Below, one piece after another: positions 12,334 to 31,104 of a stretch of 64,000 nucleotides of DNA; within the stretch, counting starts at the first letter, position 1, and the number at the start of each line of letters is the position of its first letter. The stretch comes from Saccharomonospora piscinae (GTDB taxonomy: Bacteria > Actinomycetota > Actinomycetes > Mycobacteriales > Pseudonocardiaceae): contig NZ_VCEK01000003.1 in assembly GCF_005862235.1 (NCBI RefSeq), positions 912,079-976,078 of the forward strand, given 5' to 3'. The notes under the pieces were generated by a model that made no database searches, was not told the DNA's origin, and saw only the letters and a list, made by a program, of their open reading frames with translations. The translations under genes and the position numbers were made by a program.

Positions 12334-13161
12334 TCACTCGGTGAGCCGGCTGCGCAGGAATTCGAGCGTCCTGGCGAGCAGCCGGGACACGTGCATCTGG
12401 GAGATTCCCACGCGCTCGGCGATCTGGGTCTGCGTCATGTTGCCGAAGAAGCGCAGGATGAGCACCCGCCGTTCGCGTTCGGGCAGGCTCGCGAGCAGCG
12501 GTTGCAACGACTCGTGGTACTCGACGTTCTCCAGCTCCACATCGTCCTCGCCGACCGTCTCGGCCAGCGGCAGGGTGCCCTCGTCGTCGTAGGCGGCGTC
12601 CATGGACACCGACTGGTAGGCGTTGCCCGCGAGCAGACCGTCCCAGACGTCCTGCGGAGCGAGGCCGAGTTCGGCGGCGAGTTCGCTGGGCGTCGGAGCC
12701 CTGCCGAGCCGCTGGGCGAGCTTGCCGCTGGCCTGGCTCAGCGACAGGTGCAGTTCCTTGAGCCTGCGCGGTACCCGGACCGCCCAGCTGGAGTCGCGGA
12801 AGTGCCGCCGTACCTCACCCATGATCGTCGGCACCGCGAAGGCCACGAACTCGGTGCCCCGTGAGGCGTCGAAGCGGTCGATCGCGTTGAGCAGGCCCAG
12901 CCTCGCCACCTGTACGAGGTCGTCGCGCGGCTCACCGCGGCCGACGAAGCGGCGGGCGATGTGCTCGGCCAGCGGCAGGCAACGAGTGATGATCTCTTCC
13001 CGGACGGCGGCCCGCTTCGGGTCGTCCGGCTCGAACGAGGCGAGGGTGTTGAACAGTGGGGAGAGGTCCTCGTAGCTACTGGAGCCGCCTGAGCCGCGGG
13101 AGCCGGCGGAGCTTTGTGCTCGCGCACGGCGTTCGACGCGGGATTGCTCGTCAGGGGTCAC
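12334..13161 (-). CDS. SigB/SigF/SigG-type RNA polymerase sigma factor
   Basis: This 275-residue group 3 sigma-70 protein has sigma region 2 around LAEHIARRFVGRGEPRDDLVQ and GLLNAIDRFD. Region 3 follows with WAVRVPRRLKELHLSLS, and region 4 with a helix-turn-helix (MTQTQIAERVGISQMHVSRLL). The closest family style is actinobacterial stress/sporulation sigma factors (SigF/SigB), normally controlled by an RsbW-like anti-sigma factor and STAS antagonists. No anti-sigma gene lies next to it, but a STAS protein is divergent at 13557. The start at GTG 13161 is chosen by length; an ATG at 13197 is also possible. The N-terminal 35 residues are Ser/Gly-rich and variable. Confidence 0.88.
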   Translation of the reverse strand: MTPDEQSRVERRARAQSSAGSRGSGGSSSYEDLSPLFNTLASFEPDDPKRAAVREEIITRCLPLAEHIARRFVGRGEPRDDLVQVARLGLLNAIDRFDASRGTEFVAFAVPTIMGEVRRHFRDSSWAVRVPRRLKELHLSLSQASGKLAQRLGRAPTPSELAAELGLAPQDVWDGLLAGNAYQSVSMDAAYDDEGTLPLAETVGEDDVELENVEYHESLQPLLASLPERERRVLILRFFGNMTQTQIAERVGISQMHVSRLLARTLEFLRSRLTE

Positions 13162-13556
13162 GGGACCGTGGCTACCCCGCTCCGGTTGGCACCACACCCC
13201 CGTAATGGCTGGTCGGGCGAGGGGGGTTGACAGCCTCGGCCCGGTTCGGACAGTGCCGGTGGACCCTCGCGGTGAGTGACGTACGGCCCGGTCGCGGCGC
13301 CCCGAAGGTCACACGTTCGTGTGAAGCCGGGGCGGGCGGTCCCGGCGGTGCGGCGAGGCAGTGGCGTCCGCATGGTACGACCGGCCGCGTGAACCGGGAC
13401 CAACAATCCACAGTGGACTTAAAATCCGCGTGACGTCACGGACAGTGTGCGTCGGCGTTCTTCTTGCGACCGCGACCGGCGCGGGCGTACCGTCACCGGC
13501 GGTGGCTTCGCGCCAGCCGTGCCGGGGGATCCGTAGAGGCGGAAGGCGGCGACCGG
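13162..13556. promoter_or_regulatory. 395-bp divergent intergenic region with short palindromes
   Basis: No convincing gene lies here. The region separates the leftward sigma factor gene from the rightward STAS gene and must carry their promoters. Visible palindromes are TCACAC/GTGTGA around GTTC at 13309-13324, TCCAC/GTGGA around one A at 13407-13417, and a perfect CGTGACGTCACG at 13429-13440. None can be matched to a known regulator by eye. Confidence 0.4.
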
Positions 13557-17549: not shown

Positions 17550-17762
17550 ATGGCGAGCGAGTCCGTGGGCAGATCCGGGGGTCCCCGCCGACGCCCGCTG
17601 TCCGAGCTGGACCGCCTCCGCTCGTGGCAGACCCACCGCGGACGCGCGCGCAGCGCGGCGCGTCGTGCGGGTGGTTGCGGTCTGCCGTCAGGATGGTGTC
17701 CCGTCACGGGCAGGCGCTGTCCGCGCGGCGACGTGTCGCCCGTCAGGAAACGTCCCGCGTGA
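17550..17762 (+). CDS. Possible small Arg-rich protein (weak call)
   Basis: This 70-residue frame starts at ATG 17550, seven bases after GGGGG. It is very Arg-rich with several Cys (LSELDRLRSWQTHRGRARSA, then CGLPSGWCPVTGRRC). It ends 20 bases inside the 3' end of the convergent XRE gene. A competing + frame starts at GTG 17431, directly after the TACACT of the palindrome, and runs to 17841 with equally high GC at third positions for its first 55 codons. At most one is real. The 386-bp region between the two XRE genes otherwise holds only the palindrome. Confidence 0.25.
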   Translation: MASESVGRSGGPRRRPLSELDRLRSWQTHRGRARSAARRAGGCGLPSGWCPVTGRRCPRGDVSPVRKRPA

Positions 17763-18687
17763 GTTCGCGACCCAGCTCCGCCACCAGGTCGACCGACTCC
17801 GCCGGGGTGAGTGCCGCCTTCGCCAGGTCGCGCCAGAGTGACCGGAAGACGGCGAGCGTCTCGGGGCTCTCGTAGTGAATGCGGTCCACCGGGGTGCTCA
17901 CCCACGCGGTCTCGGAGAAGTCCTGGATCAGTTCGGACGGCAGCAGCAGCTCCGTGAAACCCGCGCAGGCCCCGGCTGGTCTGCCCGCGCTGTCCGGTAG
18001 CACTCGCAGGGTGAGGACGCCTTGTCGTGCCCTGGCCGCGAGCGTGGTGAGCTGTTCGCCCAGCACGTGCGGGCCGCCGACCGGGCTGCGCAGTGCGCTC
18101 TCGCCCAGAACGCAGGTCAACCGCGGGGCGTCGGGCCGGTCCAGCACGGCCTGCCGACCCCGCAGCATGCGGAGCTGGAGCGTGAGCTCGTCGGCGCGGT
18201 GCTCGGTCAACTCCGCGCGCAGGACCGCCTCGGCGTAGGAGGGGGTCTGCACGAGTTCCGGCACGCGCTGGGGTTCGTAGATCCGCATCTCGGCGGCGGA
18301 GTACTCGAAACCCGCGAACAGGGCGAGCGAGCGAGGGGGGAAGTGGTCGGGGAACTCGTCCTCCCACCAGTCCGGTGAGCGCATCTCCACGCGGTCGCGC
18401 AACCGCCGGTAGTAAGCCGCCCGGTCACCGTGGCCGTAGCTGTCGAGCATGATGTCGAGACTGTCGTGGCTCGGCAGGTAGCGGCCCATCTCGTAGTGCC
18501 CGATGGTGGCCCTGCTCTTACCGATCCGCTTCGCGATCTCGCTCTGGTTGGAGTTCGGGCTCGTCTCGCGCAGCCTCTTCAGTCCCTGGGTGAACGCCCA
18601 TTCCGCGACGACGTGGCTGACCTCGGCCAAGGGCCTCACCTTTCGGCAGTCGGGCGAGGCGGCATGCTTCACCCGAAAGGACCACAC
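17743..18687 (-). CDS. XRE-family regulator with DUF5753 (Scr1-type) domain
   Basis: This protein of up to 314 residues has a helix-turn-helix (SNQSEIAKRIGKSRATIGHYEMGRYLPSHDSLDIML) and a DUF5753 C-terminal body. Hallmarks of the body are FAGFEYSAAEMRIYEPQRVPELVQTPSYAEAVLRA and GRQAVLDRPDAPRLTCVLGESAL. In actinomycetes these proteins usually pair with a DUF397 protein as a toxin-antitoxin-like or developmental module; no DUF397 gene is visible here. The start is uncertain: GTG 18687 lies just after a palindrome and would be nearly leaderless, while GTG 18639 gives a 298-residue protein without a clear ribosome-binding site. The 28-bp palindrome upstream suggests autoregulation. Confidence 0.8.
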   Translation of the reverse strand: MWSFRVKHAASPDCRKVRPLAEVSHVVAEWAFTQGLKRLRETSPNSNQSEIAKRIGKSRATIGHYEMGRYLPSHDSLDIMLDSYGHGDRAAYYRRLRDRVEMRSPDWWEDEFPDHFPPRSLALFAGFEYSAAEMRIYEPQRVPELVQTPSYAEAVLRAELTEHRADELTLQLRMLRGRQAVLDRPDAPRLTCVLGESALRSPVGGPHVLGEQLTTLAARARQGVLTLRVLPDSAGRPAGACAGFTELLLPSELIQDFSETAWVSTPVDRIHYESPETLAVFRSLWRDLAKAALTPAESVDLVAELGRELTRDVS

Positions 18688-19771: not shown

Positions 19772-20763
19772 GGCGGCAACCTGTGCAAGCCCTGGGTGCT
19801 CCCGTAGGCTTCGACGCGCAGCCGACGGACTGTGTCACATTCTGTCGGCTCGCCGTGCGCCCGTATCCCTCCCCAACGGCGCACCGGCGGTGATGGTGTC
19901 CCGGTGCTGAACCCCCAGCAGCGCCGGGACACCTGCCGGGAGGTCTCTCTTTTCGGATTCTCTTTCGCTCCCGATTCTTCGGTTTTTCCGATTATTCTTC
20001 GGGCGCGCTATCCGGATCGGTCGCGGTGCCCGTTCTCGATCTCACGTGAAAGATAACGGGATCGTTGTCTACCGTCGGTGGTGCTCACTATCACCTTGGG
20101 TGTATCGCCCGGTGGGCACGTTGTTCATGGCGCAACCTGTTGCCGTATACGATACGAAACTAAAGTGGGGACGGATATCACACCGACGGCCTAAATGATC
20201 ACCCCGGGTGTCAATTCTCGATACCGGCAGTAGGCGACGCTGCTCCGGCCGGGTGAGGTTCGGAGTCGGTTGTCCGCAGGGGTACGCCTGCCTGACGAGT
20301 CGCGGCCCCGGACTCCCCGCGGCCCGACTACCACCGGTTTTGTCGCAGGTGACGGCGTCGAAGCCGTGGTGTGGAGTGGTCGCCGACCGGCGGCGCGGCG
20401 CGGCGGACGGTATACGTCGGGTGAGCCGGTGGATCACGCAATCGACCCATTGCCTTTTTCGTCAAGTGTTCAATAGATTGGGTTCGGCCGTATTGCGGGG
20501 ATCAACGAGGATGTGCTGCAATCAGGCTCGGCCGGCTGAGGACCGAATGGACGGTTCGTGGCGACGACCGGCTCCGTGCGCGTGTGGACCGTCTCCTCCG
20601 CGAGGGCGCGATGTCGACGATGGTCCGGGTGTTCGCGTGTGCGTTTTTTCGGCGTGATAAATGCGCGCGTACCGGCGCGCCCCGGCGGCGAGGAGGAATG
20701 GCGCGATAAGTGTGACGCGGTTCGCGGAGTGTGCACTGTGGCCGAACGTGGAAGGGATGCGTG
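19772..20763. promoter_or_regulatory. Long (about 1 kb) leader/promoter region of the betaine-SAM operon
   Basis: No convincing gene lies here; the frames present are short and of poor codon quality. Stretches at 19950-20010 and 20130-20180 are unusually AT-rich for this genome, as expected of promoters. One candidate has TTGCCT at 20450-20455, an 18-base spacer and TAGATT at 20474-20479, which would give a leader of about 280 nt. At 20691-20709 a perfect AGGAGG precedes a four-codon frame (Met-Ala-Arg-stop), 54 bases before the methyltransferase ATG. I saw no SAM, SAH or cobalamin riboswitch by eye. Osmotic control is likely from the operon's content but is not shown by a known site. Confidence 0.45.
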
Positions 20764-22476
20764 ATGAAGGATTCGAGGTCTGGTCCAGCAGAGGTGAAAG
20801 AGGCCGGCACCGTGGGAAGTGACGAGGTCCAGATCGAGGCACACCCGGCACAGGAGTTCGGTTCGGACCCCCTGACCGTTCGCGACACCGACCACTACAC
20901 CAACGAGTACGTCAAGGGATTCGTCGAGAAGTGGGACGACCTCATCGACTGGAAGAAGCGCTACGAGAGCGAGGGCAGCTTCTTCGTCGACCTGCTCAAG
21001 TCGCGTGGTGTCCGGTCCGTGCTGGACGTCGCCGCCGGGACGGGGTTCCATTCGGTACGCCTCATCGAGGAGGGCTTCGACACCGTCAGCGTCGACGGCA
21101 GTGCCGAGATGCTGGCGAAGGCGTTCGAGAACGGGCTGACCTACGGCGGGCACATCCTGCGGGTCGTCCACGCCGACTGGCGTCAGCTCAACAAGGACAT
21201 CCACGGCCAGTTCGACGCTGTGGTGTGTCTCGGCAACTCGTTCACGCACCTGTTCTCGGAGCGCGACCGGCGCAAGGCGCTCGCCGAGTTCTACGCGGTG
21301 CTCAAGCATGACGGCGTTCTGATCCTCGACCAGCGCAACTACGACGCGATCCTCGACAACGGCTTCTCCAGCAAGCACACGTACTACTACTGCGGCGACG
21401 AGGTCACGGCCGAACCCGAGTACATGGACGACGGGCTCGCGCGGTTCCGCTACCGGTTCCCCGACGACTCGCAGTACCACCTCAACATGTTCCCGCTGCG
21501 CAAGGACTACACGCGCAGGTTGTTGCGCGAGGTGGGCTTCCAGCGGGTCGAGACCTACGGTGACTTCCAGGAGACGCACCAGGTCAAGGACGATCCCGAC
21601 TTCCTCATCCACGTGGCCGAGAAGAACTACGCGGTGGACGGCGACGAGACCGCCCGGTACTCGGCCGCCGTGAACGTGGCCCGCGACTACTACAACTCCG
21701 ACGACGCGGACAACTTCTACTACTCCATCTGGGGCGGGGAGGACATCCACGTCGGCCTGTATGAGCACGATGACGAAGACATCGCCGCCGCGAGCAGGCG
21801 TACCGTCGAGCGAATGGCGGCCACCGCGGGTATCACGTCGGCCACCCGGGTGCTCGACATCGGATCCGGGTACGGCGGCGCGGCGCGCTACCTCGCCAAG
21901 ACCTTCGGCGCTCACGTCACCTGCCTGAACCTCAGCGAGGTCGAGAACGAGCGCAACCGCCGGTTCAGCGAGGAGCAGGGATGCTCGGACCTGGTGGAGG
22001 TCGTGGACGGGTCGTTCGAGGACCTGCCGTTCGAGGACAACGAGTTCGACGTCGTGTGGTCGCAGGACGCGATGCTGCACAGCGGCGACCGCGTCCGGGT
22101 GCTGCAGGAGGTCGCCCGGGTACTGAAGCCCAAGGGCGAGTTCGTCTTCACCGACCCGATGGCGGCCGACGGTTGTGACCGGGCCTCGCTGCGGCCGATC
22201 CTCGACCGGCTGCACCTGGACAGCATGGGCTCGCCGGAGTTCTACCGCAGGGAACTCGGCAGGCTCGGTCTGGCTCGCGTCGACTTCGAGGACCACAGTG
22301 CGCAGCTGGCCGCCCACTACGGCAGGGTGCTGGCCGAGACGGAACGCCGCCACGCCGACCTCTCCGCCCTGGTGAGCGAGACCTACCTCACGCGCATGAA
22401 GGCCGGTCTCAGGAACTGGGTCGAGGGTGGACGGGCCGGTAACCTCGCGTGGGGCATATTCCACGTGCGGGCCTGA
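20764..22476 (+). CDS. Fused glycine/sarcosine N-methyltransferase - sarcosine/dimethylglycine N-methyltransferase
   Basis: This 570-residue enzyme joins the two SAM-dependent methyltransferases that make glycine betaine from glycine. The GSMT half (about 40-295) has motif I VLDVAAGTGFHS at 86-97. It also has the substrate-site style of glycine methyltransferases (NSFTHLF, LDQRNYDAIL, GFSSKHTYYYCGD). The SDMT half (about 305-570) has motif I VLDIGSGYGGAARYL near 362, and LNLSEVENERNR, WSQDAMLHSGDR and VFTDPMAADG typical of SDMT. Three methylations use three SAM and release three S-adenosylhomocysteine. The same fusion order is known from Actinopolyspora halophila; most other organisms have two genes. 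ATG 20764 follows GGAAGGG. It is the first gene of a run that regenerates SAM. Confidence 0.93.
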   Translation: MKDSRSGPAEVKEAGTVGSDEVQIEAHPAQEFGSDPLTVRDTDHYTNEYVKGFVEKWDDLIDWKKRYESEGSFFVDLLKSRGVRSVLDVAAGTGFHSVRLIEEGFDTVSVDGSAEMLAKAFENGLTYGGHILRVVHADWRQLNKDIHGQFDAVVCLGNSFTHLFSERDRRKALAEFYAVLKHDGVLILDQRNYDAILDNGFSSKHTYYYCGDEVTAEPEYMDDGLARFRYRFPDDSQYHLNMFPLRKDYTRRLLREVGFQRVETYGDFQETHQVKDDPDFLIHVAEKNYAVDGDETARYSAAVNVARDYYNSDDADNFYYSIWGGEDIHVGLYEHDDEDIAAASRRTVERMAATAGITSATRVLDIGSGYGGAARYLAKTFGAHVTCLNLSEVENERNRRFSEEQGCSDLVEVVDGSFEDLPFEDNEFDVVWSQDAMLHSGDRVRVLQEVARVLKPKGEFVFTDPMAADGCDRASLRPILDRLHLDSMGSPEFYRRELGRLGLARVDFEDHSAQLAAHYGRVLAETERRHADLSALVSETYLTRMKAGLRNWVEGGRAGNLAWGIFHVRA

Positions 22477-22530
22477 CGTGCGTAGCGGAGAAGAACGGCG
22501 ACTGTCACCGAGGAAGGACGAGGAAGCATA

Positions 22531-23730
22531 GTGACTGCGAACCGAAGGCTGTTCACCAGTGAGTCCGTCACGGAGGGCCACCCGGACAAGATGTGTGACG
22601 CGATCAGCGACACCATCCTGGACGCGATGCTCGCGGCCGACCCGAGGAGCCGGGTCGCGGTGGAATCGCTGATCACCACCGGGCAGGTCCAGGTGGCGGG
22701 CGAGGTGACCACCGACGCCTACGTGGACGTGCCCACGCTGGTTCGGGACCGGATTCTGGAGATCGGTTACGACTCGTCGGCGAAGGGCTTCGACGGCGCG
22801 TCGTGCGGTGTGAACGTGGCGATCGGCTCCCAGTCGCCCGACATCGCCCAGGGCGTCGACACCGCGTACGAGTCGCGGCTGGAGAACGCGCTCGACGAGC
22901 TGGACAAGCAGGGCGCGGGTGACCAGGGGCTGATGTTCGGCTACGCGTGCTCGGACACGCCCGAGCTGATGCCGCTGCCGATCGCGCTGGCCCACCGGCT
23001 GTCCCGCCGACTCACCGAGGTGCGCAAGAACGGCACGGTGCCCTACCTGCGCCCGGACGGCAAGACGCAGGTCACCATCGAGTACGACGGCGACAAGCCG
23101 GTCCGGCTGGACACCGTGGTGATCTCCAGCCAGCACGCCGAGGGCATCGACCTCGACGGCATGCTGGCCAAGGACGTGCTCCAGCACGTGATCACCCCGG
23201 AGATCGAGGCGCTGGGGTGGGACGCCGGCGAGCCGAGGACGCTGATCAACCCGACGGGCCGGTTCGTGGTCGGTGGCCCGATGGGTGACGCGGGCCTGAC
23301 CGGTCGCAAGATCATCGTCGACACCTACGGCGGGATGGCGCGGCACGGTGGTGGCGCGTTCTCGGGCAAGGACCCGTCGAAGGTCGACCGCTCGGCCGCC
23401 TACGCCACTCGCTGGGTCGCGAAGAACATCGTGGCCGCCGGACTGGCCGACCGCGCCGAGATCCAGGTCGCGTACGCGATCGGCAAGGCCGCGCCGGTGG
23501 GGCTGTTCGTCGAGACGTTCGGCACCGAGAAGGTGGACCCCGCCAAGATCCAGGCCGCGATCAGCGAGGTGTTCGACCTGCGCCCCGCCGCGCTCATCCG
23601 CGATCTCGACCTGCTGCGCCCGATCTACGCGCCCACGGCGGCCTACGGCCACTTCGGCCGCACGGACGTCGACCTGCCCTGGGAGCGCACCGACAAGGCG
23701 CCGGCGCTCAAGGACGCGGCGAAGGCCTGA
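22531..23730 (+). CDS. metK: S-adenosylmethionine synthetase
   Basis: This 399-residue enzyme makes SAM from methionine and ATP. Signature sequences are [20 protein letters not shown] at the N-terminus, [12 protein letters not shown] (hexapeptide-type ATP site), and the P-loop-like [19 protein letters not shown]. The length is normal for actinobacteria. It begins at GTG 22531 after GAGGAAG and lies 54 bases after the betaine methyltransferase, as if to supply it. Actinomycetes usually carry metK near DNA-biosynthesis genes, so this may be a second, osmoadaptation-dedicated copy; that needs the rest of the genome. Confidence 0.96.
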
Positions 23731-23838
23731 GCGGCAGGCCCGCACCCGTTTTCCCTCCTGTCCCGGCTCGGGCGGGGCGGACGGCATGTCACCGCCGTCC
23801 GCCCTGCCCACCGTGACCCGCCGCCCGCACGCGTTCGC

Positions 23839-23860
23839 CGGCCCCGGCCCACCGGGGCCG
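23839..23860 (+). other. GC hairpin in the metK-kinase spacer
   Basis: CGGCCCCGG (23839-23847) pairs with CCGGGGCCG (23852-23860) around CCCA in the 168-bp gap between metK and the PfkB kinase gene, 38 bases before the kinase ATG. It could be an attenuator or mRNA-stability element that lowers expression of the downstream genes. There is no T-run, and the operon clearly continues. Confidence 0.45.
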
Positions 23861-23898
23861 GGTCGCGGCCTACCCGCCCCCACGAGGAGTGTGCCCGC

Positions 23899-24876
23899 AT
23901 GCGCATAGCCGTCACCGGCTCCATCGCCACCGACCACCTGATGGTCTTCCCCGGCAAGTTCGCCGACCAGTTCGTCGCCGACCGGATGGACAAGGTGTCG
24001 CTGTCCTTCCTGGTCGACCAGCTCGACATCCGCAGGGGAGGTGTGGCCGCCAACATCTCGTTCGGGCTCGGCAGCCTGGGGATGACCCCCATCCTGGTCG
24101 GTGCCGTCGGCAAGGACTTCGCCGACTACCGTTCGTGGCTGGAGCGGCACGGTGTCGACACCGCGTCGGTACACGTGTCCCAGGAGCGGCACACCTCGCG
24201 CTTCCTGTGCACCACCGACGAGTCGCAGGCCCAGATCGCCTCCTTCTACGCGGGGGCCATGGAGGAGGCGCGGGACATCGAGCTCAAGGTCGTGGCCGAC
24301 CGGATCGGTGGCCTCGACCTGGTGATCGTCGCGCCGAACGACCCCGCCGCGATGGTGCGCCACACCGAGGAGTGCCGCCAGCGCGGCATCCCGTTCGCCG
24401 CAGACCCGTCACAGCAGCTGGCGCGGATGGCGGGCCCCGAGATCCGCATGCTGGTCGACGGCGCGGCGTACCTGTTCACCAACGAGTACGAGACGTCGCT
24501 GCTGCTGAAGGAGACCGGCTGGTCCGAGGCCGACGTGCTGGACCGGGTCGGTTACTGGGTGAAGACCTACGGTCCCGACGGTGTGCGGATCGAGTCGAAG
24601 GACGCCGAAGCGCTGGCCGTGCCCGCGCTGACGGTGGCCGACGAGATCGACCCGACCGGGGTCGGCGACGCGTTCCGCGCCGGCTTCCTGTGGGGCCTGC
24701 ACGCCAAGCTCGGACTGGAACGGTCGGCGCAGGTCGGGTGTACCCTGGCGGCCATCGTCCTGGAAACCGTCGGCACGCAGGAATACACCCTGGACCGGGC
24801 GGAATTCTCCAAGCGGGTGGCCACGACCTACGGCAACGACGCCGCGGCCGAGATCGAATCCAAGCTGCGGGTGTGA
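23899..24876 (+). CDS. PfkB-family kinase, probable adenosine kinase
   Basis: This 325-residue ribokinase-fold protein begins IAVTGSIATDHLM and has the substrate-site GG region RRGGVAANISFGLG. The C-terminal PfkB signature DPTGVGDAFRAGFLWG carries the anion hole and catalytic Asp. The sequence style matches actinobacterial adenosine kinase (Rv2202c type), which phosphorylates adenosine to AMP. Position supports this: SahH, encoded two genes downstream, releases adenosine, and removing it pulls SAH hydrolysis forward. The stop is separated from the metH ATG by only 2 bases. A general sugar-kinase role cannot be excluded from sequence alone. Confidence 0.82.
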   Translation: MRIAVTGSIATDHLMVFPGKFADQFVADRMDKVSLSFLVDQLDIRRGGVAANISFGLGSLGMTPILVGAVGKDFADYRSWLERHGVDTASVHVSQERHTSRFLCTTDESQAQIASFYAGAMEEARDIELKVVADRIGGLDLVIVAPNDPAAMVRHTEECRQRGIPFAADPSQQLARMAGPEIRMLVDGAAYLFTNEYETSLLLKETGWSEADVLDRVGYWVKTYGPDGVRIESKDAEALAVPALTVADEIDPTGVGDAFRAGFLWGLHAKLGLERSAQVGCTLAAIVLETVGTQEYTLDRAEFSKRVATTYGNDAAAEIESKLRV

Positions 24877-24878
24877 AC

Positions 24879-28427
<3,549 letters not shown>

Positions 28428-28462
28428 ACAGTGGGCACACTCCCACGTCGAGAAAGGAAACT

Positions 28463-29920
<1,458 letters not shown>

Positions 29921-30005
29921 CGGAAAGTCGGCGGGGAGGGCCACCGGTGGGCCTCGGCTGCGGCCGTGTCGACGGTGGCCCTCCCGGCACCGAAGGGAGT
30001 TGATC

Positions 30006-30917
30006 GTGCGGAGGGTTGCCGACCGGCTGAACGGCTCGGATCGCCCGACGTTCTCGGTGGAGTTCTTCCCGCCCCGTGACGAGGCGGACGAAGCCATCCT
30101 GTGGCGGTCGATCCGCGAGCTGGAGCCGCTTGACCCCGCGTACATGTCCATCACCTACGGAGCTGGTGGGACCAGCCGCGAGGGCACCATCCGCAACATC
30201 GCCAGGGTCGCGACCGACACCACGCTGGTGCCGATGGCACATCTGACGGCGGTGAACCACTCGGTGGCGGAGCTGCGCAACGTGATCGGCCACTTCGCCG
30301 CCGTGGGCGTGCACAACGTGCTCGCGCTGCGGGGCGACCCACCGGGAGACCCGATGGGGGAGTGGGTGGCGCACCCGGAGGGTCTGCACTACGCCGAGGA
30401 ACTGGTGCGGCTGACCCGCGAGCTGGGCGACTTCTGCGTCGGGGTGTCGGCGTTCCCGTACGGTCACCCGCGTTCGCCCGACCTGGAGACGGACACGCAC
30501 TACCTGGTGCGCAAGCTGCGCGCGGGCGCGGACTTCGCCATCGCGCAGCTGTTCTTCGAGGCCGACGACTTCCTGCGGTTGCGCGACCGCGTGGCGGCGG
30601 CGGGCTGCGACGCACTGATGCTGCCGGGCATCATGCCGCTGACCACACCGAAGACGTTGCGCAAGACGATCGAGCTCTCCGGTGCCACGCCGCCCGCGTG
30701 GCTGACGGAGCGGCTCGACCCACTCAGCGACGACCCCAAGGCGTTCCGGGCCGAGGGCCTCAACGTGATCACGGAGCTGTGTGAGCGGCTGCTCCGGGAG
30801 GGGGTACCGGAGCTGCACTTCTACACGTTCAACCGGTCCAAGGCCACCCGGGAGCTGGTGGATCGGCTGGGACTGCGTTCGCCGCGGGCGGAGCCCGCGC
30901 TCACGACACGGCCCTGA
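30006..30917 (+). CDS. metF: 5,10-methylenetetrahydrofolate reductase
   Basis: This 303-residue TIM-barrel flavoenzyme makes methyl-tetrahydrofolate, the methyl donor for MetH. Family marks are PTFSVEFFPPRDE at the N-terminus, YMSITYGAGGTSREGTIR, NVLALRGDPPGDP and FAIAQLFFEADDF. GTG 30006 is selected for its GAAGGGAG site and the usual distance to the SVEFFPP motif. It is the last gene of the run and is followed by a large terminator. MetF plus MetH plus MetK rebuild SAM from homocysteine, so one-carbon units from serine or glycine ultimately feed the betaine methyl groups. Confidence 0.95.
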   Translation: MRRVADRLNGSDRPTFSVEFFPPRDEADEAILWRSIRELEPLDPAYMSITYGAGGTSREGTIRNIARVATDTTLVPMAHLTAVNHSVAELRNVIGHFAAVGVHNVLALRGDPPGDPMGEWVAHPEGLHYAEELVRLTRELGDFCVGVSAFPYGHPRSPDLETDTHYLVRKLRAGADFAIAQLFFEADDFLRLRDRVAAAGCDALMLPGIMPLTTPKTLRKTIELSGATPPAWLTERLDPLSDDPKAFRAEGLNVITELCERLLREGVPELHFYTFNRSKATRELVDRLGLRSPRAEPALTTRP

Positions 30918-30929
30918 GCCGTCCCACCT

Positions 30930-30975
30930 GGGCACCGTGGTGAGGCTTCAACGGCGAAGCCCCACCACGGTGCCC
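30930..30975 (+). terminator. Strong terminator of the betaine-SAM operon
   Basis: GGGCACCGTGGTG (30930-30942) pairs with CACCACGGTGCCC (30963-30975); an inner GGCTTC/GAAGCC stem continues it after a single mismatch, closing on a six-base loop. It starts 13 bases after the metF stop, and TTTCGTC follows. It is among the longest stems in the window. Confidence 0.88.
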
Positions 30976-31104
30976 GTTTCGTCGGTACCGGCCGGATCGT
31001 CCACTGTGCTCGCTGCGGCGCGGGAGGCAACGAAGCCCTTACTACGCTTGGCGTATCAATAGGGCTAAGGTTGGCCATTCGCACTGACGCCGGGCGAGGT
31101 GGGT

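What the first reader, a model, noticed from the sequence alone, without database searches (positions are those of the whole stretch)
20764..30917. Six-gene run joins betaine synthesis to its own SAM regeneration cycle
The sequence shows, on one strand with small gaps and one strong terminator, a GSMT-SDMT fusion, metK, an adenosine-kinase-like gene, metH, sahH and metF. Established biochemistry: GSMT/SDMT consume three SAM per betaine and are product-inhibited by SAH. SahH splits SAH, adenosine kinase removes adenosine, MetH and MetF remethylate homocysteine, and MetK remakes SAM. The inference is that the cell controls betaine output by expressing the methyl cycle as one unit, probably under osmotic stress. 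The fusion enzyme is known (Actinopolyspora); packaging it with nearly the whole cycle is the notable part.
Basis: partly seen in the sequence, partly recalled or inferred. Interest (0 to 1): 0.8.

Follow-up and report, generated by a model that had tools for sequence, protein, structure and literature searches.

The report
Betaine operon with own methyl cycle
A salt-protection gene cluster in an actinomycete carries, next to the enzyme that makes betaine, nearly all the enzymes that recycle the methyl donor it uses up; this arrangement was already in print for a relative, but here the cluster also holds the cell's only known copies of several of these basic enzymes.

Summary
The six genes are real: GSMT-SDMT fusion, metK, adoK, metH, sahH, metF, + strand, 20764-30917. 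The arrangement is not new: PMC7824335 Table 4 lists 'fusedMT-MAT-o-MS-SAHase-MTHFR' for Actinopolyspora halophila, with 'o' where adoK lies here (passages). In the window's family 42 of 90 genomes carry the betaine methyltransferase and 25 of the 42 show GS-metK-adoK-metH-sahH in that order.

Added here: (1) in the window's genome the run holds the only metH, sahH and metF found; metK and adoK have second copies. (2) Its sahH and metH belong to operon clades apart from the housekeeping copies that other carriers keep, so housekeeping copies were probably lost. (3) The two metK copies look homogenised by gene conversion. (4) Hairpins follow metK and sahH as well as metF, so 'one unit' is not supported by sequence. 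(5) A conserved element sits about 300 bp upstream of the fusion and nowhere else in this genome at up to 3 mismatches. Salt control is untested.

The parts
20419..20481 (+). Conserved upstream element: GGGTGA (20419-20424), core TCACGCAATCGACCCATTG (20434-20452), TCAATAGATTGG (20470-20481); promoter-like TTGCCT - 18 bp - TAGATT (20450-20479)
   Evidence: Alignment of 13 loci; scan of upstream regions; the only match in this genome at up to 3 mismatches. Promoter role is inference; the strict sigma-70 scan found none
20764..22476 (+). GSMT-SDMT fusion (glycine/sarcosine plus sarcosine/dimethylglycine N-methyltransferase)
   Evidence: NF051855 over cut-off, NF041675 below cut-off; PDB 5h02 1.4e-122 and 2o57 8e-77
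22531..23730 (+). metK, SAM synthetase, operon copy; a second copy lies at G000:C3:67985-69181
   Evidence: TIGR01034
23770..23809 (+). Strong hairpin in the metK-adoK gap (17 bp, loop 6), no U run
   Evidence: z -4.41; z -3.0
23899..24876 (+). adoK, adenosine kinase; a second copy at G000:C6:175710, 64% identical
   Evidence: PF00294; PDB Adenosine kinase 1.5e-113
24879..28427 (+). metH, cobalamin-dependent methionine synthase, only copy found
   Evidence: TIGR02082, all five Pfam domains
28463..29920 (+). sahH, S-adenosylhomocysteine hydrolase, only copy found
   Evidence: TIGR00936
29931..29988 (+). Hairpin in the sahH-metF gap
   Evidence: z -3.39; z -2.6
30006..30917 (+). metF, methylenetetrahydrofolate reductase (start at GTG 30006 inferred), only copy found
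   Evidence: PF02219; TIGR00676 just below cut-off
30929..30976 (+). Hairpin after metF, probable end of the run
   Evidence: z -3.84

Best explanation
A betaine-synthesis cluster with a built-in SAM cycle. The fusion methylates glycine three times to betaine, making three SAH. SahH splits SAH, AdoK removes the adenosine, MetF and MetH remethylate homocysteine, and MetK remakes SAM. Shown by sequence: gene identities, order, conservation, copy numbers and gene trees. Inferred from established enzymology: the reactions. Inferred here: in the window's lineage the operon-type sahH and metH have displaced the separate housekeeping genes, so the betaine cluster now also serves the whole cell's methylation. 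The cluster probably works as at least two blocks, GS-metK (switchable, under the conserved upstream element) and adoK-metH-sahH (needed always), parted by a hairpin; the second metK elsewhere covers the cell when the first block is low.
For: Gene identities. Same order in 25 of 42 carriers among 90 family genomes. Only metH, sahH and metF found in the genome. Operon-type sahH clade of 20 rows including the window, support 99/97; operon-type metH clade of 21 rows, 100. Of the 25 full clusters, 13 have no other sahH or metH at E 1e-60, while 23 keep a second metK. Of 11 genomes behind named loci, 10 have one sahH, in the cluster position. The metH slot of Haloechinothrix (G003/L049) holds a metH only 31-34% identical, and the sahH slot of G018, G056 and G039 holds a housekeeping-type sahH, so the order outlived changes of gene. 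Hairpins: metK-adoK gap z <= -3 in 17 of 28 loci and after sahH in 21 of 27, against 2 of 27, 1 of 15 and 1 of 24 for the other gaps; in 6 Actinopolyspora-type loci 3 of 16 stem pairs change on both sides and stay paired.
Against: No expression data. The hairpins lack a U run, and the window's own metK-adoK gap misses the z <= -3 line (-3.0), as do both same-genus relatives (G024 -0.4, G062 -0.5). The untwinned gaps are shorter, which weakens the comparison. No promoter could be made out in the metK-adoK gap (alignment). The link between single-copy state and a long metK-adoK gap (p 0.038) has only 2 independent pairs on supported branches and is not evidence. 9 of 42 carriers have the methyltransferase without these neighbours, so the cassette is not required. 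Copy loss rests on searches of draft genomes, though the window's genome is rated 100% complete.
Confidence: 0.75

Rival explanations
1. One osmotically induced operon of six genes with read-through of all hairpins.
For: All on one strand, adoK-metH gap 2 bp, conserved order; a single conserved upstream element.
Against: Hairpins after metK and sahH. An essential sole-copy sahH and metH would then follow salt alone. No salt data.
Confidence: 0.3
2. Plain housekeeping methyl-cycle genes that happen to lie beside the methyltransferase.
For: metH, sahH and metF are sole copies. G027, without the methyltransferase, has metK-adoK-metH-sahH too.
Against: sahH lies within 10 kb of metH in only 2 of 48 non-carriers, one of them (G081) probably a carrier with a gap (some partial rows dropped). 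Operon-type sahH (82% or more) occurs in one non-carrier only, G081. Six two-copy carriers keep distinct housekeeping sahH and metH elsewhere (G020, G028, G041, G053, G058, G084).
Confidence: 0.05
3. A general methyl-cycle cassette that couples to whichever methyltransferase needs it, betaine synthesis being one customer.
For: G027 has the same four-gene order beside an O-methyltransferase, an aldolase, a dehydroquinate synthase II and an AMP-binding enzyme, without the fusion; G064 has metK-adoK-sahH. G027's sahH and metH fall with housekeeping types in the trees, so it looks separately assembled.
Against: Only one full example outside betaine clusters was seen among 48 non-carriers; for metK and adoK the non-carriers were checked by eye, not exhaustively.
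Confidence: 0.3

Closest known systems
Actinopolyspora halophila DSM 43834 betaine cluster (PMC7824335, Table 4; passages seen)
   Same: fusedMT-MAT-o-MS-SAHase-MTHFR: same order and same enzyme set
   Different: The 'o' gene is not named there; here it is adenosine kinase. Copy number, gene replacement and hairpins are not in the passages seen
Halorhodospira GMT-DMT-MAT-SAHase-MTHFR cluster (same paper)
   Same: Methyltransferase, SAM synthetase, SAH hydrolase and MTHFR together
   Different: No methionine synthase or adenosine kinase in the cluster; metK 59-61% and sahH 61-62% identical only
Roseivivax roseus and Roseovarius nitratireducens fusedMT-MTHFR-MS-MAT-SAHase (same paper)
   Same: Fusion with the four cycle enzymes
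   Different: Other order, no kinase listed
Methanohalophilus sams-sahh-gsmt-sdmt (PMC3176816, passages seen)
   Same: SAM synthetase and SAH hydrolase beside the methyltransferases; same rationale of removing SAH
   Different: Archaeal, genes split, cycle genes upstream, no metH, kinase or metF in the passages

Membership tests
GSMT-SDMT betaine methyltransferase fusion | GSMT half | tested here: met
   NF051855 478.7 bits, cut-off 350; PDB 5h02
GSMT-SDMT betaine methyltransferase fusion | SDMT half | tested here: inconclusive
   NF041675 408.2 bits over profile 7-276 of 278, cut-off 550 not reached; PDB 2o57 8e-77
GSMT-SDMT betaine methyltransferase fusion | Makes betaine from glycine | not testable with these tools
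   needs enzyme assay
Betaine cluster with methyl-cycle genes (MAT, MS, SAHase, MTHFR) as in PMC7824335 | All four cycle genes beside the methyltransferase, same strand | tested here: met
Betaine cluster with methyl-cycle genes (MAT, MS, SAHase, MTHFR) as in PMC7824335 | Order as printed for Actinopolyspora halophila | tested here: met
Betaine cluster with methyl-cycle genes (MAT, MS, SAHase, MTHFR) as in PMC7824335 | Expressed together and induced by salt | not testable with these tools
   no expression data; hairpins after metK and sahH
Adenosine kinase (actinobacterial, PfkB type) | PfkB fold and closest to a proven adenosine kinase | tested here: met
   PF00294; best of 22 PDB sequences is Adenosine kinase, 382 bits, next group 172. 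Activity not tested
MetF | MTHFR family model | tested here: met
   PF02219 299.3 bits, cut-off 24; TIGR00676 286 against 293.7, just short
Known riboswitch in the leader or gaps | Rfam match at gathering score | tested here: not met
   0 matches in the 64 kb window; no covariation in the leader

The most novel reading that the evidence does not exclude
In this lineage an accessory osmolyte cluster has taken over central methyl metabolism: the operon's own SAH hydrolase and methionine synthase replaced the housekeeping ones, the cluster is split by a conserved hairpin into a salt-switched block (fusion, metK) and an always-on block (adoK, metH, sahH), and the duplicated metK is kept alike by gene conversion with its housekeeping twin.
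Probability: 0.4. Interest if true: 0.6.

Novelty: new member of a known kind. Interest (0 to 1): 0.4.

Why it matters
The cluster is a natural design for running a SAM-hungry pathway without poisoning by SAH, useful for betaine engineering. If housekeeping sahH and metH were really displaced, it is a clean case of an accessory stress operon capturing essential metabolism, and the two-block layout makes the cost and control of that capture directly testable by comparing single-copy genera (Saccharomonospora, Actinopolyspora) with two-copy Prauserella.

Tried and rejected
Riboswitch or other known RNA: none in the window. Structured leader: fold of 13 leaders gave a covariation term of only -0.34, so the upstream conservation is read as DNA. 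Leader peptide: looked at by eye in the alignment, frame not kept; no call tested it. Regulon: the core element matched once in the own genome and 14 times in 8 genomes at up to 3 mismatches, 8 upstream of the fusion and 6 elsewhere, all six at exactly 3 mismatches; reversed-pattern control 0. No regulon followed. Linked regulator: of the flanking genes compared, none was shared by all loci tried; synteny upstream held mainly with two Saccharomonospora loci. Single-copy state against gap length: p 0.038 but not independent of descent. sahH alternative-tree test: rejected strongly (p-AU 2.7e-104), but the groups were named after the tree was seen and the constraint also moves other rows. Gene conversion by permutation ignores kinship and shared codon bias; 5 of 19 genomes (G013, G025, G039, G056, G063) do not show their own pair as best. 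The metH tree is drawn from a very long outgroup branch, so only the unrooted split is used. Plasmid search: 1 of 177 records covered 80% or more of the fusion (Roseinatronobacter, 55%), not followed. Not-in-print statements: searches listed nothing on displacement of housekeeping genes or metK conversion in these clusters; open-licence papers only, listings and abstract starts seen, four papers searched for passages (PMC7824335, PMC9062515, PMC7042295, PMC3176816).

Rows dropped before counts (typed by hand): partial rows of non-carriers for sahH (G048 one, G051 two, G083 three, G011, G087 and G010 one each); for metH one row each of G040 and G011; second pieces or SDMT rows of G071, G050 and G082; one metK piece of G058; most metK and adoK rows and all metF rows of non-carriers. 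Carriers' co-location was called within 25 kb on one strand.
Full report
What is there. The run at 20764-30917 holds six intact + strand genes: GSMT-SDMT fusion, metK, adoK, metH, sahH and metF, with gaps of 54, 168, 2, 35 and 85 bp. metK, metH and sahH pass curated equivalog cut-offs, as does the GSMT half; the SDMT half and metF fall below one curated cut-off each but match their families otherwise. The kinase's best solved relatives are adenosine kinases (that these are from Mycobacterium tuberculosis is recalled, not seen).

Known or new. PMC7824335 prints 'fusedMT-MAT-o-MS-SAHase-MTHFR' for Actinopolyspora halophila, similar clusters for Halorhodospira and two Rhodobacteraceae, and the same rationale of supplying methyl groups and removing SAH (passages). 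PMC3176816 reports sams and sahh upstream of gsmt-sdmt in Methanohalophilus (passages). So the headline of the finding is already in print; the 'o' position matches adoK here.

Survey. In 90 genomes of the family (46 genera, the own genome included) 42 carry the methyltransferase at E 1e-60. Of the 42, metK is close by in 30, adoK in 28, metH in 27, sahH in 26 and metF in 12; 25 have metK, adoK, metH and sahH together, always in the same order on one strand. Of the remaining 17, seven look cut by contig ends (G025, G033, G035, G038, G046, G049, G067; for G033 this is inferred), one lacks metH (G017), and nine show no such neighbours (G002, G037, G040, G042, G050, G071, G074, G075, G082; contig lengths were not seen for all). 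Among the best 79 of 263 loci in named genomes, 13 of 40 outside Actinomycetes have at least one of these genes nearby: 8 of 9 Gammaproteobacteria, 3 of 3 Spirochaetota and 2 of 3 Opitutia; 0 of 12 Alphaproteobacteria and 0 of 7 Nitrospirota (flanks are short in some).

Sole copies. In the own genome sahH has one match and metH one full match (a second, 27% over residues 14-303 only) at E 0.001; metF has one at E 1e-30; metK two and adoK two. Of the 25 full clusters, 13 have no other sahH and no other metH at E 1e-60; 12 have another sahH and 8 another metH; 23 keep another metK. Of 11 genomes behind named loci, 10 have a single sahH and its coordinates match the cluster; Prauserella flavalba has two.

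Displacement. In the sahH tree the window's gene lies in an operon clade of 20 rows (99; careful tree 99/97), apart from the housekeeping copies of two-copy carriers and of non-carriers. In the metH tree 21 operon rows form a clade with support 100. The simplest reading is that the operon paralogs stayed and the housekeeping copies were lost. Not all cluster genes are of one origin: G018, G056 and G039 carry a housekeeping-type sahH in the slot, Phytoactinopolyspora sahH sits beside the housekeeping group, and Haloechinothrix carries a metH only 31-34% identical to the window's. Order kept while genes are swapped argues for selection on the set.

metK twins. In 19 genomes with both copies fetched, third-position identity between operon and housekeeping metK is 77.4% within a genome against 64.9% over all pairs; 0 of 10000 random pairings reach it; in 14 of 19 the best partner is the genome's own, the window's included (80%). 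Identical runs reach 1083 nt in G069, 445 in G005, 434 in G072 and 149 in the window. Two assemblies (G038, G067) break where metK ends on different contigs are 99.8-100% identical, and six of the named-genome loci end inside metK (L003, L022, L026-L029). Patchy identity argues for gene conversion; kinship and codon bias were not modelled.

Layout of expression. Hairpins with z <= -3 lie in the metK-adoK gap of 17 of 28 loci and after sahH in 21 of 27, against 2 of 27 (GS-metK), 1 of 15 (adoK-metH) and 1 of 24 (metH-sahH). The window's own values in that run are -3.0 and -2.6 and are not among the counted; with 200 shuffles they are -4.41 (148 of 168 nt) and -3.39. The two same-genus relatives are unremarkable for the metK-adoK gap (-0.4, -0.5). 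In 6 Actinopolyspora-type loci the stem keeps pairing through changes on both sides in 3 of 16 pairs. None has a U run, so they may end, pause or shape the message; which is unknown.

Upstream element. Thirteen loci share GGGTGA, TCACGCAATyGACcCATTG and TCAATAGATTG about 230-370 bp before the fusion; related but weaker forms occur in Saccharopolyspora and Actinopolyspora loci with 3-6 mismatches. In 8 genomes the best match is always this site. A promoter TTGCCT-18-TAGATT fits by eye. No expression data exist here, so osmotic control stays an inference.

Verdict. Observation confirmed; interpretation partly supported; arrangement known; the added value is the sole-copy state, the probable displacement of housekeeping genes, the metK conversion and the doubt about a single unit.

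Noticed in passing
L145 (G027:C1:5856000-5875500): A genome without the betaine fusion has metK-adoK-metH-sahH in the same order, beside an O-methyltransferase, a DeoC/LacD aldolase, a 3-dehydroquinate synthase II and an AMP-binding enzyme: a natural-product-like cluster with its own SAM cycle.
   Followed up: partly
L051, L052, L055, L071, L078: Five Saccharopolyspora or Halosaccharopolyspora loci carry a stand-alone GSMT-like gene; 11 of 90 family genomes have one in addition to the fusion. Function unknown.
   Followed up: no
L020, 2-14673: Saccharopolyspora dendranthemae contig with two divergent copies of fusion plus metK.
   Followed up: no
window 12337-13197, - strand: A sigma-70 family sigma factor with regions 2, 3 and 4, about 7.5 kb upstream, 88% identical in Saccharomonospora saliphila at the same place.
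   Followed up: no
window 17746-18687, - strand: Helix-turn-helix protein with DUF5753; similar genes near the cluster in several relatives at 34-61% identity.
   Followed up: no
G002:C48, G048:C125, G080:C30: metK (64-65% identical)-adoK-sahH cluster away from, or without, the betaine fusion.
   Followed up: no
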